64,000 nucleotides of DNA from Nitrospirota bacterium (lineage in GTDB: Bacteria; Nitrospirota; Leptospirillia; Leptospirillales; Leptospirillaceae). Within the stretch, counting starts at the first letter, position 1. Each line of letters opens with the position of its first letter. Shown here one piece after another: positions 10,937 through 38,644 of the stretch. The stretch lies in NCBI GenBank assembly GCA_027314645.1, contig DAHVAL010000001.1:1-64000 (forward strand). The letters are read 5' to 3'. The notes beneath the pieces were generated by a model. It ran no database searches, was not told the DNA's origin, and saw nothing but the letters and a program-made list of their open reading frames with translations. The position numbers were made by a program, and so were the translations under genes.

Positions 10937-12007
<1,071 letters not shown>

Positions 12008-12057
12008 AAATCTGGGTTTTTGGATTTGAATCGAGCGTATCCGGAAGAGGAGGCATA

Positions 12058-13254
12058 GTGGAGAGGTCCAAGCTGTGCGTTGACCAGATCAACGTCCGGG
12101 GCAAGCGCGTCTTTTTGAGAGCCGACTTCAATGTGCCCTTGGACGGGGACATGCACATCACCGATGACCGGCGCATCCGGTCGGCTCTTCCGACGATCAA
12201 TTACCTGATCGACGAGGGCGCGAAGGTGATCCTGGCGTCCCATATGGGTCGACCCAAAGGGACTCCGGATCCGAGATATACCATGGCTCCTGTGGCCAAG
12301 AGACTCTCACGCCTCCTGTCAAAGGAGGTCCGGTACAATGGAGAGCTCGTGGGCCCCTCCGTGGAGCGCGAAATCGAGAAAATGTCCCCGGGAGAGGTCT
12401 TCCTCCTGGAGAACCTCCGGTTCGACAAGGGGGAAGAGACCAACGACGAGGAGTTTTCGAAAAAGCTTGCCAGGCTGGGGGACGTTTACGTCAACGACGC
12501 CTTCGGGACTGCCCACAGGAGCCATGCCTCGGTCGTCGGGATCACCCATTTTATTAAGGAGTTGTCGATCGGTTTCTTGATGAAGAAGGAGGTGTCCTAC
12601 CTGAAGGGGGCCATCACCAATCCCACGCGGCCCTTTGTCGCCGTTCTTGGTGGCGGAAAGGTCTCGAGCAAGCTGGGGGTGATCGCCAACCTCCACGAAA
12701 AGGTGGACAAGATGGTGATCGGCGGGGGAATGGCCTTCACCTTCTACCGGGCCATGGGTCTTGAAACCGGAAAGTCCCTGGTGGAGGAAAATCTGGTGGA
12801 AGTGGCAAGGGAAATGATGGAAAAATCCCGAATCCGGAATGTGAAGTTCTATCTTCCGATGGACTGCGTGGTGGCGGAGAGCCGGGAAAGCAATGCGCTC
12901 ACCAAGATCGTCCCCTACCAGGAGATCCCCCCGGGATGGACGGCTCTGGACATCGGACCCGCGTCAGTCCGGCTTTTTTCGGAGGTTCTGGAAAATGCCA
13001 AGACCATCCTGTGGAACGGTCCCATGGGGGTCTTCGAAGAGGACGCCTTTTCCCGGGGGACCTACGCCATGGCGCATTCGGTAGGAAACTGCTACGCGCT
13101 GACGATCGTGGGGGGAGGAGATACCGCGCTAGCCGTGCATCGCGCCGGGGAATCCGACAACATGACCTTTATTTCCACGGGAGGGGGTGCGGCGCTGGAA
13201 CTTCTTGAAGGCAAGGAGCTCCCCGGGCTTTCGGTGATTCCGGACGCGACGTAA
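12058..13254 (+). CDS. pgk: Phosphoglycerate kinase
   Basis: Transfers phosphate between 1,3-bisphosphoglycerate and ADP. It has 398 residues from a GTG start preceded by GGAAGAGGAGGCATA. Signature RVFLRADFNVPLDG near the N-terminus, SHMGRPKG substrate loop, GTAHRSHASVVG, and the nucleotide-binding C-terminal lobe with LGGGKVSSKLGV and GGGDTALAV. Complete, with no odd residues. It sits 50 bp after gap and 11 bp before tpiA, so it is part of the same operon. It supports the Calvin-type or gluconeogenic triose flow needed to feed the glucan genes elsewhere in the window. Confidence 0.97.
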   Translation: MERSKLCVDQINVRGKRVFLRADFNVPLDGDMHITDDRRIRSALPTINYLIDEGAKVILASHMGRPKGTPDPRYTMAPVAKRLSRLLSKEVRYNGELVGPSVEREIEKMSPGEVFLLENLRFDKGEETNDEEFSKKLARLGDVYVNDAFGTAHRSHASVVGITHFIKELSIGFLMKKEVSYLKGAITNPTRPFVAVLGGGKVSSKLGVIANLHEKVDKMVIGGGMAFTFYRAMGLETGKSLVEENLVEVAREMMEKSRIRNVKFYLPMDCVVAESRESNALTKIVPYQEIPPGWTALDIGPASVRLFSEVLENAKTILWNGPMGVFEEDAFSRGTYAMAHSVGNCYALTIVGGGDTALAVHRAGESDNMTFISTGGGAALELLEGKELPGLSVIPDAT

Positions 13255-30508: not shown

Positions 30509-32670
30509 ATGGAATATGATCGGCCCCATCGGGAGGAGGACCAACGGGCGACGATGGTTCTTGTCCTGCACAATCATCAGCCGTTCGGGAATTTTTCCCA
30601 TGTGTTCCGGGAGGCGTTCGAACGTTGCTACCGTCCGACTCTGGATCTCCTGTGGCACCATGAAGCGATTCACGCATCCCTTCACTACTCCGGTCCGCTG
30701 CTCGAATGGATCGAATCCCATGAACCAGGCTTCCTCGATCTTCTCCGGAAGATGGTGGATCGGGGCCAGGTGGAAGTCATCGGAGGAGGATTTTACGAGC
30801 CGATTTTTTGCTGGCTTCGTTCCACTGATCAACAGCGGCAGGTGGAGTTGATGCGCCGGCATCTCCGGGACCGTATGGGGCGGGATGGGGAGGATTTTGG
30901 CTGGCAGAACGGGTCTGGGAAACGGATCTGCCGGCAAAGCTTTTTCCACTGGGATTGACCTATGCCCCTCTCGATGATCACCATTTCCACCTTGCCGGCT
31001 TCAACGACGAGAACCTTCATGGCTATTACACCGTGGCATGGGAAGGGGCCCCTCTTCGGATATTTCCCATCTCCCGGGACCTCCGTTACCTGATTCCCTT
31101 CCGCCCGGTGGACCAGGTCCTGTCCTTCCTCGACCGGCGGGCAAAAGGGGGACGGGTCCTTACGTACGCCGATGACGGAGAGAAGTTTGGAATCTGGCCG
31201 GAGACCTTCCACTGGGTGTGGGAGGAGAAGTATCTCGAACACCTTTTCGGGGTGCTCGAGGCCCAGTCGGGGTGGCTGCGTGTCGCGTCGATGGGAGAAG
31301 TGGTGGCGGAACGGAAGCCGACGGGGATCGCCGTCCTCCCCAACGCCTCTTATACCGAAATGATGGAATGGGCTCTGCCGGCCCAGATCAGCCACGTGTT
31401 CCACGAATGGACCCTAAAATGGGAAAAGGAAGGGGCGGATCCGGTCCTCAGGACCATTTTTCGAGGGGGAATCTTCGAAAATTTCCTGATCAAGTACCCG
31501 GAGGTCCATCGTCTATATCACCGGATGCTCCTGACAGGACGCTTTATCGAAGAGGCCTTCGGCTCCGCGGAACCTCCGGACGATGTGATCATTCCCTATC
31601 TCCGGGCCCAGGGCAACGATGTCTATTGGCACGGCTTGTTTGGCGGAGTGTATCTTTCGAATCTTCGCCATGAGGCGTACGCCAACCTCCTCCTCTCCGA
31701 AAAAGCCCTTGAAGCCGGGGGGAAACTCCCGGTTCCCACAATGATCGAAGGAGATTTCGATGCGGATGGAGCGGAGGAATACTTTGTCCGTCAGAGGGGA
31801 TACAATCTCTGGATCACCCCGCACCATGGAGGGAGCGTCCTCGAATGGGACAACCGAATTACGGGATTCCATTTGACCAACACGCTGACCCGGCAGGAGG
31901 AAGCCTACCATCTCCGCTACAGGGAAAGCCGGGGATCTTCGGGCGAAGGTGCTCCGGGAGGGCAGGGAATCGCGTCGATCCATGACCGCCCGGTTTCCGA
32001 CAACGGTCAAGCGCTGAACGGCATCGTGTATGATCGCCGTCCCCGCCGGGCCTTCGCGGAAGGAATCGCCCCCCTGGACGCCCCGCCCAAAGGCTTGCTC
32101 GACGGATCGGCCCTCTCTCCCGACTTGGGACAGTGTCCCTACCAGGTCGCGGGGAAGTCCATCGAGGAGCTTTTGCTGGAGACTGCCGGAACTCTCGAAG
32201 GGAGTTCCTTTCTTCTTTCCAAGAGGTACCGTTTCTCTTCCAATCAGTTTTCCATTGTCTGGAGCCTTTCGGCGCCGGGGCAGAAAGATCTCCCCGATGC
32301 GTGGAAGAACCGGGCTCTCTATGTGGAGATTCCCATGACCCTTCTCGCCGGCCATGATGCGGGACGGACGATTACTGTGGACCGGCGGGATGGACCGTTC
32401 TTTTGGGATGACTCTTGGGAGCATGGAGAAGTGGCCTGGTACCGTGGCGAAGATTCCTGGTCGAAGACGGCGTTTTACGCGGCTTTGTCCGGAATTATCC
32501 GTCTGATTCACGCCCCCATCGACACGGTTTCCCTGTCTGAATCCGGTCTGAGGCAGACGTTCCAGGGAACAATGTTTATCCACGCAATTCCTCTTTCCCG
32601 TATCTTCGGGGGAGAAGCGTCGATCACGATCTTTCAGGGACATGAATCAAGGAGCCCCTCGCATGCCTGA
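30509..32670 (+). pseudogene. GH57 4-alpha-glucanotransferase, frameshifted at the nucleophile motif
   Basis: Two adjoining frames make one 4-alpha-glucanotransferase (about 720 residues when joined). Frame 1 (30509-30958) has HNHQPFGN and GGGFYEPIF. Frame 2 (read from about 30900) has ADDGEKFGIWP with the acid Asp, then the DUF1925/1926-like beta domains. Between them one T is missing in the run at 30895-30898. Restoring it gives DFWLAERVWETDLPAKLF, containing the GH57 nucleophile Glu codon at 30907-30909. As written, the enzyme is broken exactly there. It may be a sequencing error, a real mutation or slippage. It starts directly after the GH57 amylase stop. Confidence 0.9.
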
Positions 32671-35285: not shown

Positions 35286-36875
35286 ATGGCCGATATTCAT
35301 GGAAATCTCGTCTTTGTTCTCCACGCCCATCTTCCCTACGTCCGGCATCCCGAGCACGAGATCTTCCTTGAGGAGAACTGGTTTTTCGAGGGGCTGATCG
35401 AGACCTACCTTCCCTTGCTGGCCATGTTCGAACGTCTGACTAAGGACAGGGTCACCTTCAGGATCACCATGACCTTTTCCCCGACGCTGGTGTCGATGAT
35501 GGAAGATCCCCTCCTGATGGGACGCTTTGAAAAGAGATTCGCGCTTCTCCGGGAGCTTTCGGAGCGGGAGGTGGCCCGGACAAGGGGAACCGAATTTGAA
35601 GGCGTGGCCCATTTTTACCGGAATCGGCTCGCCGCTCTCGATCAGCTCTACCACCAGGACCTTGGGCGGAACCTTCTGGGGGCCTTCCGCCGGCACATGG
35701 AGGAGGGTTCCCTTGAAGGAATCACCTGCGGGGCAACCCATGGGTATTTGCCGTTTCTCAAGGAGGTCGCTGGATCCCCAGAAGCCCAGGTCCGCGTGGG
35801 CGTATCGACATTCCGGCGCGTTTTCGGGCGGCCTCCCCAAGGGATCTGGCTGCCGGAATGCGCCTATTACGACGGGCTTGACAGGATTCTCAAGAAAGAA
35901 AAACTTCGGTTCTTCTTCCTGGAGGCCCATGGGCTTCTCTATGCCGACCCAAGGCCTCCCGCGGGTGTCTACGCGCCTCTCGTCACCCCCTCCGGAGTCT
36001 ATGCCTTTGGGCGCGATCCCGAGTCGTCCCGTGAGGTCTGGAGTTCGAAGGAAGGATATCCGGGAGATTTCCTCTACCGGGATTTCTATCGGGATATCGG
36101 GTACGATTTGGACTACGACTATGTCCGTCCCTATCTTCATACCGATGGCCCCCGGGGAATGACGGGATTCAAATACTACCGGATCACCGGTTCCACCGAT
36201 CAAAAAGAGGTCTACAATCCGGCATGGGCCTCGGAGCAGGTTCGGACTCACGCCCGGGATTTTGTTGAGAAGCGGAAGGCGCATGTCCGCCATCTTTCCG
36301 GGGTTCTTGGAGTCGCCCCGACGGTCGTTTGCCCATACGATGCCGAACTTTTCGGGCACTGGTGGTTTGAAGGAGTGGATTTTCTGGAAGCGGTGTTCCG
36401 GGAGGTCGCCTGGCAGGAGACGATCGAGGTCCATACCCCCGTCGAACTTGTCCAGGCGGGAATCCCCGCCTCGGCGGGAGCCCCTGAACCCTCTTCCTGG
36501 GGTGAAAACGGTTACTACGATTTCTGGATGAACGGGACCAACGATTGGATCTATCCGCCCTTGTTCGAAGCGGCCAGAGAAATGGCCCGTCTTTTGGAGC
36601 AACGCGGCCTGTCCCAAGGGAGGGAGCGGGAGATTCTAAACCAGATGGGAAGAGAACTTCTCCTTGCCCAAAGTTCGGACTGGCCCTTCATTATGACGAC
36701 CAAGACCCTGGTCGAGTATGCCGTGGAACGTCTCAAAGGACATCTCTACCAATTCTGGACCCTTCGGGCCATGTTGTATCCTGGACGGTACCGGGAAGAC
36801 GTATTCTCGGAGATACGAGGCAGGGACAACCTTTTCCCGGATCTTGATTGTTCAGTATTCCTTCCCCTTCCCTAA
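35286..36875 (+). CDS. GH57 1,4-alpha-glucan branching enzyme
   Basis: 529 residues from the ATG at 35286; an upstream in-frame extension is rejected for lack of a start signal. It shows the TK1436-type GH57 branching-enzyme features: HAHLPYVRHPE, the conserved GATHGYLPFL, GIWLPECAYY (nucleophile Glu191), PYDAELFGHWWFEG (acid Asp352), and the DUF1957-type C-terminal helical region around LLLAQSSDWPFIM. It creates alpha-1,6 branches in glycogen. This would complement GlgE or GlgA; no GH13 glgB is visible in the window. Confidence 0.92.
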   Translation: MADIHGNLVFVLHAHLPYVRHPEHEIFLEENWFFEGLIETYLPLLAMFERLTKDRVTFRITMTFSPTLVSMMEDPLLMGRFEKRFALLRELSEREVARTRGTEFEGVAHFYRNRLAALDQLYHQDLGRNLLGAFRRHMEEGSLEGITCGATHGYLPFLKEVAGSPEAQVRVGVSTFRRVFGRPPQGIWLPECAYYDGLDRILKKEKLRFFFLEAHGLLYADPRPPAGVYAPLVTPSGVYAFGRDPESSREVWSSKEGYPGDFLYRDFYRDIGYDLDYDYVRPYLHTDGPRGMTGFKYYRITGSTDQKEVYNPAWASEQVRTHARDFVEKRKAHVRHLSGVLGVAPTVVCPYDAELFGHWWFEGVDFLEAVFREVAWQETIEVHTPVELVQAGIPASAGAPEPSSWGENGYYDFWMNGTNDWIYPPLFEAAREMARLLEQRGLSQGREREILNQMGRELLLAQSSDWPFIMTTKTLVEYAVERLKGHLYQFWTLRAMLYPGRYREDVFSEIRGRDNLFPDLDCSVFLPLP

Positions 36876-36911
36876 GGGGTGAGGGAACGCGTTCCGAAAG
36901 AAGGGATCCCC

Positions 36912-37283
36912 CTAGCCTTTTTCGGCCGCCATGAAGGCCTTGAAGCGTTCAAGTTCCACCAGGGAATCCCGAAATTCCTCAAGGTCGACCATGAAGGGCC
37001 GGATCTTTTCGATCTCCTCCATGAAGGTCTTGAACCGTTCCATCTCGGCCATGAGACTTTTCATCCGGTCTTGTTCGGAGATGAACAGGGTCCTGAACCG
37101 GTCCATCTCTGCCAGGAGGAGTTTGAATTTCTCCACTTCGCTCATGAAGGAGCGAAACCTTTCCATTTCCACCTGGAGAGCCTTGAAGCGGTCGAGGTGG
37201 GTCATCGAGGGTCGGATCTGTTCGACTTCCAGAATAAAAGCCCGGAATCGTTCGAGGGTCGAGGTGGTCTTGCCGGGTTCCAT
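36912..37283 (-). CDS. Decapeptide-repeat coiled-coil-like protein
   Basis: 123 residues; ATG at 37283 with AAAAAGGAGATCCTG, a strong ribosome-binding site. After nine residues almost the whole protein is a run of about eleven 10-residue units, consensus E-[MVLI]-[ED]-[KR]-[FI]-[KR]-x-[FL]-[ML]-x, for example EMERFRSFMS, EVEKFKLLLA, EMERFKTFME, EIEKIRPFMV; one unit has 11 residues. It ends AEKG. There is no signal peptide or membrane segment. It is convergent with the branching enzyme. No known family is recognised; an elongated helical or phasin-like role is possible but unproved. Confidence 0.75.
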   Translation of the reverse strand: MEPGKTTSTLERFRAFILEVEQIRPSMTHLDRFKALQVEMERFRSFMSEVEKFKLLLAEMDRFRTLFISEQDRMKSLMAEMERFKTFMEEIEKIRPFMVDLEEFRDSLVELERFKAFMAAEKG

Positions 37284-37543
37284 CAGGATCTCCTTTTTGA
37301 CGAATTGTTGATAAAAAAAAATGATCTTTTTGAATGTTTCCTGAAAAATATTTGTTTAAGGTTTTAATGTTAAAGGTTATTTTTTTGATCCAAAAAAATC
37401 CAATTTTATTCTCACATAAATAAGGATACACAAATATTTCGGAAAGTCCAACCGAAAGAAAACGTTTCTGGAGCAACCCTTCCTTCCGCGGTCAAATCGA
37501 ACCTCCGGAGAGAAGGGTTTGCTCTCCTCCGAAGGGCGGGGAA
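37284..37543. promoter_or_regulatory. AT-rich divergent intergenic region
   Basis: 260 bp between the divergent decapeptide-repeat gene (minus) and the DUF4384-like gene (plus). It is strikingly AT-rich against a GC-rich background. It contains inverted copies AAATATTTGT (about 37348) and ACAAATATTT (about 37432) and several A or T runs that could bend DNA or bind a nucleoid protein. Probable promoters face both ways, but no single -35/-10 pair is clearly best. Confidence 0.5.
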
Positions 37544-38644
37544 GTGATCGTGCTTGGCGGGAAGATTCTTGCGCGGGTGATCATGGCCGGATTACTTCTT
37601 TCGGGGTGCGCAACCTCCCCTCCTCCGGTCGTGACCCCTCCGAAAGCAGCGCCTCTTCCGCCCCCTCCGCCCGCGTCCCCTCCCGAGATTCCGAAGGGGG
37701 CCCCAGAGCCCCCTCCAAATCCTGCGAGGTCATCGTCCTCTACGCTCATATCGACCTGTAGGCGTGTTTCGGAGAGCGGGCCCGGGAAGCGGATCGAATT
37801 TATGGTGGAAAATAAGGCGGAAATGAAGGAGATCGCTCCATTGGGGAAGATCTATTCCTTGGCGGAGCGAAGAGCCGTCGCGGGAATCTATCGGTGCAGC
37901 GGGGTAGAACGATTCCAGTCTGGACTCTTTGATCGAACCGACCGACTTGCGGGGCTTAAGGAGAGTGAAGCCAGGATCGCCCGGGAAGTCCGGAGGGTTC
38001 TGGGAATTCGACTCACGTACCAAAGGATCGAGGAGCCGTGCGCCAAAACCGATGGGATCGTTCGATGCCGCGTCCTTCTGATGGGCACGATCGACATCGA
38101 CCCCCTCGAGAACCGATTCGAGGTGCTGTCCTGGGGAACCGGAAAATGGGGGGTTTACCAGGACAGGGAATCCATCCAGTTTCGGTTTACTCTGAAGCAT
38201 CCGGCGAAGGTCTATCTCTTTGATGTGGGGGAGAATGGACAGGCCGTTCTCCTTTTCCCGGGAACCCTCCCCGGAGGAAACGGAACTCCTCATCCGGCGG
38301 GATTTCCATTCGTTTTTCCGCCGGATGAGGCGCCCGGGGTGCACCTAGTTGCCGCTCGCCCGCGCAAGGGGAAGAGGGAGATCCGCTTTCTCTGGATTCT
38401 TGCCCTTGGTGGACAGAAATTTCTTGATGCGAAGGACTTCCGGTCCATGAAATCAGGGCCATTCGATCTTCCTCATGTTGAGAATTTCATGACATCGATT
38501 CTGCCCCGCTTTCGAAGGTCCATCGGAGAGGGGGCCTGGGGCCTGAGGGTCATTCCGTATGAAGTGGCCCCAGCCTCCTCTCTCCCTGGACCCCCTCCCG
38601 AACCTCCCAAAATGAGTGGACACCCTTCCCCGGGTTCCAAATAG
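37544..38644 (+). CDS. DUF4384-like lipoprotein
   Basis: 366 residues from a GTG with GGGCGGGGAA upstream. Signal peptide with lipobox LLSGC; then a Pro-rich linker (residues 28-60) likely to span the periplasm. The globular part ends with a domain resembling DUF4384: SIQFRFTLKHPAKVYLFDVG followed by FPFVFPPDEAPGVHLVA. That domain occurs in envelope-associated proteins with no settled function. Cysteines in STCRRVS, IYRCSG, EEPCAK and VRCRV could form disulfides. Transcribed divergently from the decapeptide-repeat gene. Confidence 0.7.
   Translation: MIVLGGKILARVIMAGLLLSGCATSPPPVVTPPKAAPLPPPPPASPPEIPKGAPEPPPNPARSSSSTLISTCRRVSESGPGKRIEFMVENKAEMKEIAPLGKIYSLAERRAVAGIYRCSGVERFQSGLFDRTDRLAGLKESEARIAREVRRVLGIRLTYQRIEEPCAKTDGIVRCRVLLMGTIDIDPLENRFEVLSWGTGKWGVYQDRESIQFRFTLKHPAKVYLFDVGENGQAVLLFPGTLPGGNGTPHPAGFPFVFPPDEAPGVHLVAARPRKGKREIRFLWILALGGQKFLDAKDFRSMKSGPFDLPHVENFMTSILPRFRRSIGEGAWGLRVIPYEVAPASSLPGPPPEPPKMSGHPSPGSK

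What the first reader, a model, noticed from the sequence alone, without database searches (positions are those of the whole stretch)
36912..37283. Protein made almost wholly of 10-residue repeats
Seen: about eleven consecutive decads with consensus E-[MVLI]-[ED]-[KR]-[FI]-[KR]-x-[FL]-[ML]-x and one 11-residue unit. Known coiled coils use 7- or 11-residue periods; an exact 10-residue register would give an unusual supercoil or a non-coil assembly. The strong ribosome-binding site and clean ends argue for a real gene. The AT-rich divergent upstream region is also peculiar.
Basis: seen in the sequence. Interest (0 to 1): 0.65.

Follow-up and report, generated by a model that had tools for sequence, protein, structure and literature searches.

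The report
Protein built of ten-residue helical repeats
A small, conserved bacterial gene codes for a rod-like helical protein made almost only of ten-residue repeats, a spacing that ordinary coiled-coil proteins avoid, so it is a natural test of how far helices can be twisted together.

Summary
The minus-strand gene 36912-37283 encodes 123 residues, of which 9-119 are eleven tandem units: ten decads and one 11-residue unit (the sixth). Lag-10 self-similarity exceeds every shuffle, and the frame scores highest of 321 open frames in the window. It is a real gene. It is present in 13 of 14 genomes of its genus, always convergent with the same GH57 branching-enzyme gene. There is no indel before residue 119, and dN/dS is 0.06-0.23 in nine pairs. 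Outside the genus it was not found: 13 of 395 phylum genomes match, all congeners. No family or solved structure matches convincingly. Hydrophobic residues fall at decad positions 2, 5, 8 and 9, with a period of 3.32-3.34 in each half and almost no power at 7/2 or 11/3. AlphaFold2 gives one long helix, or two broken at a conserved Arg-Pro. Most likely it is a cytoplasmic, self-associating helical rod of tandem stammers (10/3), the periodicity called the most strained seen in continuous coiled coils (PMC4786415). The oligomer and the cellular role are inferred, not shown. New variant of a known kind.

The parts
36912..37283 (-). decad-repeat protein gene (123 aa plus stop)
   Evidence: dN/dS 0.06-0.23 in nine ortholog pairs
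37140..37259 (-). units 1-4 (residues 9-48), four decads; first copy of a duplicated 40-residue block
   Evidence: alignment; 19 of 40 residues identical to units 8-11
37110..37139 (-). unit 5 (residues 49-58), decad
37077..37109 (-). unit 6 (residues 59-69), the single 11-residue unit, before the invariant SEQDRMK
   Evidence: 11 residues in 13 of 13 orthologs
37047..37076 (-). unit 7 (residues 70-79), decad
36927..37046 (-). units 8-11 (residues 80-119), four decads; second copy of the block
   Evidence: lag 71 z 8.5
37209..37211 (-). codon of invariant Pro25 (Arg-Pro in unit 2); helix break or low confidence in the models
36996..36998 (-). codon of invariant Pro96 (Arg-Pro in unit 9), same place in the second block
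37290..37295 (-). AAGGAG ribosome-binding site, 6 nt before ATG
   Evidence: GGAG-type site in 13 of 13 orthologs
37420..37431 (-). conserved upstream element GTGTATCCTTA (promoter-like; function inferred)
   Evidence: GTGTATCCTT in 8 of 8 of one clade, GTGTATAAT at a like distance in 5 of 5 of the other

Best explanation
The gene encodes a cytoplasmic, almost wholly alpha-helical rod protein of eleven tandem ten-residue units (one with an extra residue). SHOWN: it is a selected gene, the register is fixed, the hydrophobic period is 10/3, and no homolog was found outside the genus in the searches made. PREDICTED: one helix of about 90-115 residues, with a break or kink at Arg-Pro in unit 2. 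INFERRED: hydrophobic positions 2, 5, 8 and 9 make a stripe that turns about -80 to -88 degrees per decad on a normal alpha-helix. To bury it, the chains associate with copies of themselves (or a partner) as a tandem-stammer bundle. The strain is taken up by overwinding of the helix (towards about 3.4 residues per turn, local 3-10 helix), by the two conserved Pro kinks and by the extra residue in unit 6, rather than by a regular supercoil. The likely use is structural: a small scaffold or filament protein. A link to the neighbouring alpha-glucan enzymes is only a guess from position.
For: Orthologs in 13 of 14 congeneric genomes; the 14th, G011, has the neighbouring GH57 gene only as a fragment at a contig end. 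All orthologs are 122-124 aa and gap-free to residue 119. Differences by codon position over all pairs are 1610/1086/3672; dN/dS 0.057-0.228 in nine pairs. ILMFV fraction at positions 2/5/8/9 is 0.91/1.00/0.81/0.91, and at most 0.20 elsewhere. Hydrophobic period 3.32-3.34 in units 1-6 and in units 7-11 of four sequences. AF2 on the window protein: helix 9-122, mean pLDDT 86.7; on the other clade: helices 9-22 and 30-121, pLDDT 83.8. Geometry: an undistorted helix in a decad dimer would need a pitch near 53-61 A and a bend radius of 20-24 A, against 144-188 A and 113-187 A for heptads; a helix of 3.4 residues per turn would relax this. PMC4786415 reports that decads (stammers) are accommodated by local 3-10 helix.
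Against: pTM is only 0.40 in both models, and nothing here shows self-association. AF2 tends to draw long single helices for repetitive charged sequences (recalled). The invariant SEQD after the 11-residue unit resembles a helix N-cap (recalled), which would suit a hairpin. No Foldseek match at E up to 10 in PDB or BFVD. No functional partner is known.
Confidence: 0.5

Rival explanations
1. The chain folds back on itself at the 11-residue unit (about residues 67-72) as an antiparallel helical hairpin of two five-decad arms, perhaps dimerising into a four-helix bundle.
For: The odd unit lies near the middle; SEQDRMK after it is invariant in 12 of 12 aligned rows; units 1-4 and 8-11 are duplicates, so the arms could pack as near-repeats.
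Against: Both AF2 models run straight through residues 59-79 as helix, with block pLDDT 95-97; there is no Gly or Pro at the supposed turn.
Confidence: 0.2
2. A helix with hydrophobic residues winding all round it, which works by wrapping or being wrapped by a different protein (heteromeric partner) rather than by self-assembly.
For: The hydrophobic stripe makes a full turn each 41-45 residues on a normal helix, so no single flat face exists; 40% of unit positions are hydrophobic.
Against: No co-conserved partner gene was identified: the next gene upstream is a DUF4384 gene in one clade (7 of 7 genomes examined besides the window) and a GH15 gene in the other.
Confidence: 0.2
3. An amphipathic helix that coats a surface (membrane, lipid or polymer granule), like 11-mer repeat proteins.
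For: Repeated short helical units; position beside alpha-glucan enzymes.
Against: An 11/3 period keeps a face straight, whereas 10/3 turns it by about 80-88 degrees every unit, which suits no flat surface; K+R and D+E are nearly balanced, 22 against 25.
Confidence: 0.07
4. A recently expanded 30-bp DNA repeat with no function as protein, or coding on the other strand.
For: Lag-30 DNA identity is 0.456 against a mean of 0.25; both plus-strand frames are long in the window.
Against: Strong purifying selection in the minus frame; no repeat-number variation in 13 orthologs; the antisense frames gain stops in several orthologs; Tandem Repeats Finder finds no array.
Confidence: 0.03

Closest known systems
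Stammers (decads) in heptad coiled coils, e.g. the OMP100 stalk and earlier trimers (PMC4786415)
   Same: Ten residues over three turns (10/3 = 3.33); hydrophobic spacing of 3 and 4.
   Different: There a single decad interrupts heptads; here all units but one are decads, with no heptad stretch.
Alpha/beta coiled coils with tandem nonads, e.g. Tcar0761 (PMC4786415)
   Same: A prokaryotic protein of many tandem short non-heptad units.
   Different: Nine-residue units with an [aliphatic]-A-T-K-[polar]-[DE] beta-layer motif; no such motif here, and no strand is predicted.
Decad motif [4,3,3] in the coiled coil of PDB 3aqb (PMC9369452)
   Same: A decad decomposition in an observed coiled coil.
   Different: A single motif between enzyme subunits, not a tandem array.
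Hendecad (11/3) repeat proteins
   Same: Short tandem helical units.
   Different: The hydrophobic period here is 3.33; power at 11/3 is 0.4-1.7 in the halves; only unit 6 has 11 residues.

Membership tests
Canonical heptad coiled coil | Hydrophobic period 3.5 (a/d positions) | tested here: not met
   Power at 7/2 0.0-3.4 against 12.0-16.7 at 10/3 in both halves of four sequences
Hendecad coiled coil | Hydrophobic period 3.67 | tested here: not met
   Power at 11/3 0.4-1.7 in the halves
Non-heptad (decad, 10/3) coiled coil | Hydrophobic spacing 3-4-3 with period 3.33 | tested here: met
   Period 3.32-3.34 in each half; positions 2, 5, 9 hydrophobic
Non-heptad (decad, 10/3) coiled coil | Two or more helices packed knobs-into-holes | not testable with these tools
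   Only monomer prediction was available
Non-heptad (decad, 10/3) coiled coil | Alpha-helical | tested here: met
   Predicted only: AF2 helix 9-122 or 9-22 and 30-121
Alpha/beta coiled coil (nonads/hexads) | 9- or 6-residue units with beta-layers | tested here: not met
   Unit is 10 residues; no strand predicted
Any Pfam, PHROG or NCBIfam family | Score above the curated cut-off (or a clear E-value) | tested here: not met
   Best Pfam 18.1 bits against cut-off 25; best NCBIfam 16 against 140; best PHROG E 0.046

The most novel reading that the evidence does not exclude
A natural protein in which tandem decads form one continuous, highly overwound left-handed (or straight, part 3-10) helical assembly over about 90-115 residues, outside the range of periodicity so far seen in continuous coiled coils.
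Probability: 0.3. Interest if true: 0.85.

Novelty: new variant of a known kind. Interest (0 to 1): 0.52.

Why it matters
Coiled coils are the best parametrised fold, and 3.33 residues per turn is described as the largest strain seen in continuous ones, met so far as isolated stammers (PMC4786415). A short, Cys-free, soluble-looking natural protein made of ten decads, held in register by selection across its genus, makes it directly testable whether a sustained 10/3 coil exists, and if so what it looks like. If it turns out to be a hairpin or hetero-partner helix, it still gives a new periodic helical design rule.

Tried and rejected
Homologs elsewhere: viral contigs (20 pattern matches, 0 confirmed) and phages (no match). 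Plasmids gave one match of 23.6% identity on a Pandoraea oxalativorans plasmid. It lies antisense to an annotated gene that has its own 30-bp repeats, and the matched frame holds a stop; I take it as chance likeness between ten-residue repeats, but its E-value was 5e-4. Two weak hits in long open frames (G039 and G054, 25% identity, E 0.0012 and 0.0017) did not return with the profile at E <= 0.001 (395 genomes) and are taken as generic coiled coil. Paralogs in the own genome: none at E <= 10. PDB by sequence: best E 0.11, and 0.097 with the 40-residue repeat profile. Foldseek: 0 matches in PDB and in BFVD. Rfam: none in the window at gathering scores. A bidirectional terminator between the convergent genes: none found in 36800-37600, where a single terminator-like site (37502-37516) against 1.5 expected is not informative. 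Literature: eight searches listed no paper that by its title or abstract start concerns a protein of tandem decads; two papers were read in passages (PMC4786415 also its Conclusions; PMC9369452). This is no proof that none is in print.

A first extraction read five minus-strand loci on the wrong strand; it was redone, and nothing is used. L010 (same protein as L009) was left out of alignments A1 and A3 and of the counts.

Full report
OBSERVATION. The minus-strand ORF 36912-37283 encodes 123 residues. Residues 9-119 fall into eleven consecutive units, ten of 10 residues and one (the sixth) of 11. Self-comparison at lag 10 has z 8.7 for the window protein, and lags 20, 30 and (after the 11-residue unit) 41, 51, 61, 71 and 81 are also high; in 3000 shuffles over lags 2-85 the largest z was 5.36. 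A second layer is visible: units 1-4 align to units 8-11 (lag 71, z 8.5), 19 of 40 residues identical here and 18-22 of 40 in 12 orthologs. At DNA level the 30-bp repeat is still visible (identity 0.456 at lag 30, mean 0.25) but is too worn for Tandem Repeats Finder. Among 321 open frames of at least 90 codons in the window, this frame has the highest lag-10 score, followed by three overlapping frames on the same DNA.

REAL GENE. An AAGGAG site lies 6 nt before the ATG. Of 61 genomes searched by protein, 13 of 14 in the genus have it (own included) and 0 of 7 in other genera of the family; two of the remaining 40 gave weak hits that I do not accept (see Tried and rejected). The missing congener G011 (70% complete) has the neighbouring GH57 gene only as a fragment starting at base 3 of a contig, so its absence is probably an assembly gap. 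The 13 proteins are 122-124 aa and align without a gap to residue 119. Differences by codon position over all pairs are 1610, 1086 and 3672; dN/dS is 0.057-0.228 in nine pairs. A tree of the coding sequences has two clades of 8 and 5, each 100/100. The unit count, the position of the 11-residue unit and Arg-Pro in units 2 and 9 are unchanged in both.

WHERE IT OCCURS. A profile of 12 orthologs finds 13 of 395 genomes of the phylum, all in the genus; a 40-residue repeat profile gives the same 13 of 395; a DNA pattern for two consecutive decads of this type gives 13 of 395, all 19 listed matches lying inside this gene, and none with the reversed control. No paralog in the own genome at E <= 10. 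In a collection of named genomes, 7 loci were found, all records titled as MAGs of a Nitrospirae bacterium. No match in viral contigs or phages. No Pfam, PHROG or NCBIfam family passes a cut-off.

CONTEXT. In 13 of 13 genomes that have it, the gene lies on the same contig as, and convergent with, the GH57/BE_C glucan branching-enzyme gene (coordinates; domains). Upstream genes there include other GH57 genes, a galactose-1-phosphate uridylyltransferase-like gene and a class II aldolase. On the other side, a DUF4384 gene is divergent in the window and in 7 other genomes of that clade. In the second clade a GH15 glucoamylase/glucodextranase-like gene takes this place in G002 and G004, and by coordinates in G008 and G006, there in two pieces in G006. 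In three genomes of other genera (G014, G016, G017) the GH57 gene is followed by the HlyD and RND genes, within roughly 0.15-1.2 kb, with no decad ORF; in G015 and G019 the neighbourhood differs and also has none. So the gene was gained, or lost elsewhere, at a conserved place within an alpha-glucan neighbourhood. Convergent orientation gives no operon link, so a glucan function is only a guess.

UPSTREAM. The 260 bp upstream are 64% AT here and 52-62% in the 12 other orthologs. A short element is conserved at about -90 to -150: GTGTATCCTT in 8 of 8 of one clade, GTGTATAAT in 5 of 5 of the other. I read it as a promoter element (inference). The region is not otherwise remarkable; Rfam has no match in the window.

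STRUCTURE. Over 12 orthologs x 11 units, ILMFV residues make up 0.91, 1.00, 0.81 and 0.91 of positions 2, 5, 8 and 9, and at most 0.20 of any other; positions 1, 3, 4 and 6 are charged in 0.85-0.94. The best hydrophobic period is 3.32 or 3.33 in units 1-6 and 3.33 or 3.34 in units 7-11 of four sequences; the 11-residue unit shifts the whole-length value to 3.37-3.38. AF2 with 12 sequences gives a single helix 9-122 for the window protein (mean pLDDT 86.7, pTM 0.40) and helices 9-22 and 30-121 for the other clade (83.8, 0.40), the break lying at the Arg-Pro of unit 2.

MECHANISM. On a normal helix the hydrophobic stripe turns -80 to -88 degrees per decad and makes a full turn in 41-45 residues. 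A dimer of undistorted helices following it would need a pitch of 53-61 A and a bend radius of 20-24 A, against 144-188 A and 113-187 A for heptads; with a helix of 3.4 residues per turn the decad becomes about as relaxed as a heptad (the radii and rise used there are recalled values). [quoted passage not shown] PMC9369452 (passages) describes single decad motifs. My reading is a self-associating rod of tandem stammers whose strain is shared between overwinding, two conserved Pro kinks and the extra residue of unit 6. The rivals are a hairpin at unit 6 (0.20), a helix that serves a different partner (0.20), and a surface-coating helix (0.07).

VERDICT. Tandem decads as the main building unit appear to be a new variant of non-heptad helical repeats; the eight literature searches named in Tried and rejected found no such protein, in a library that lacks most subscription journals.

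Noticed in passing
window 30509-32670 (+): A GH57 4-alpha-glucanotransferase-like gene is split into two ORFs in different frames (30509-30958 and 30955-32670); in two relatives (L033, L036) both parts lie in one frame, so the window copy carries a frameshift or a sequencing error.
   Followed up: partly
L034 (G006) about 11215-12947: In this relative the C-terminal part of the same GH57 gene is hit in two different frames, and the neighbouring GH15 gene is in two pieces, so frameshifts or assembly errors recur there.
   Followed up: no
window 37544-38644 (+): The divergent neighbour is a lipoprotein-like DUF4384 protein; it is only 33-37% identical to its counterparts beside the decad gene in congeners, while GH57 next door is 83-85% identical: a fast-evolving gene.
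   Followed up: no
L032 7283-9643; G000:C7:4257-6581: A GH15/Glucodextran_N gene lies beside the decad gene in one clade, but its 68-71% counterpart lies elsewhere in genomes of the other clade: a local rearrangement.
   Followed up: partly
L092 (Pandoraea oxalativorans plasmid pPO70-1) 2011-3630 (-): An annotated hypothetical protein holds many ten-residue repeats of its own; unrelated by strand to the decad protein.
   Followed up: no
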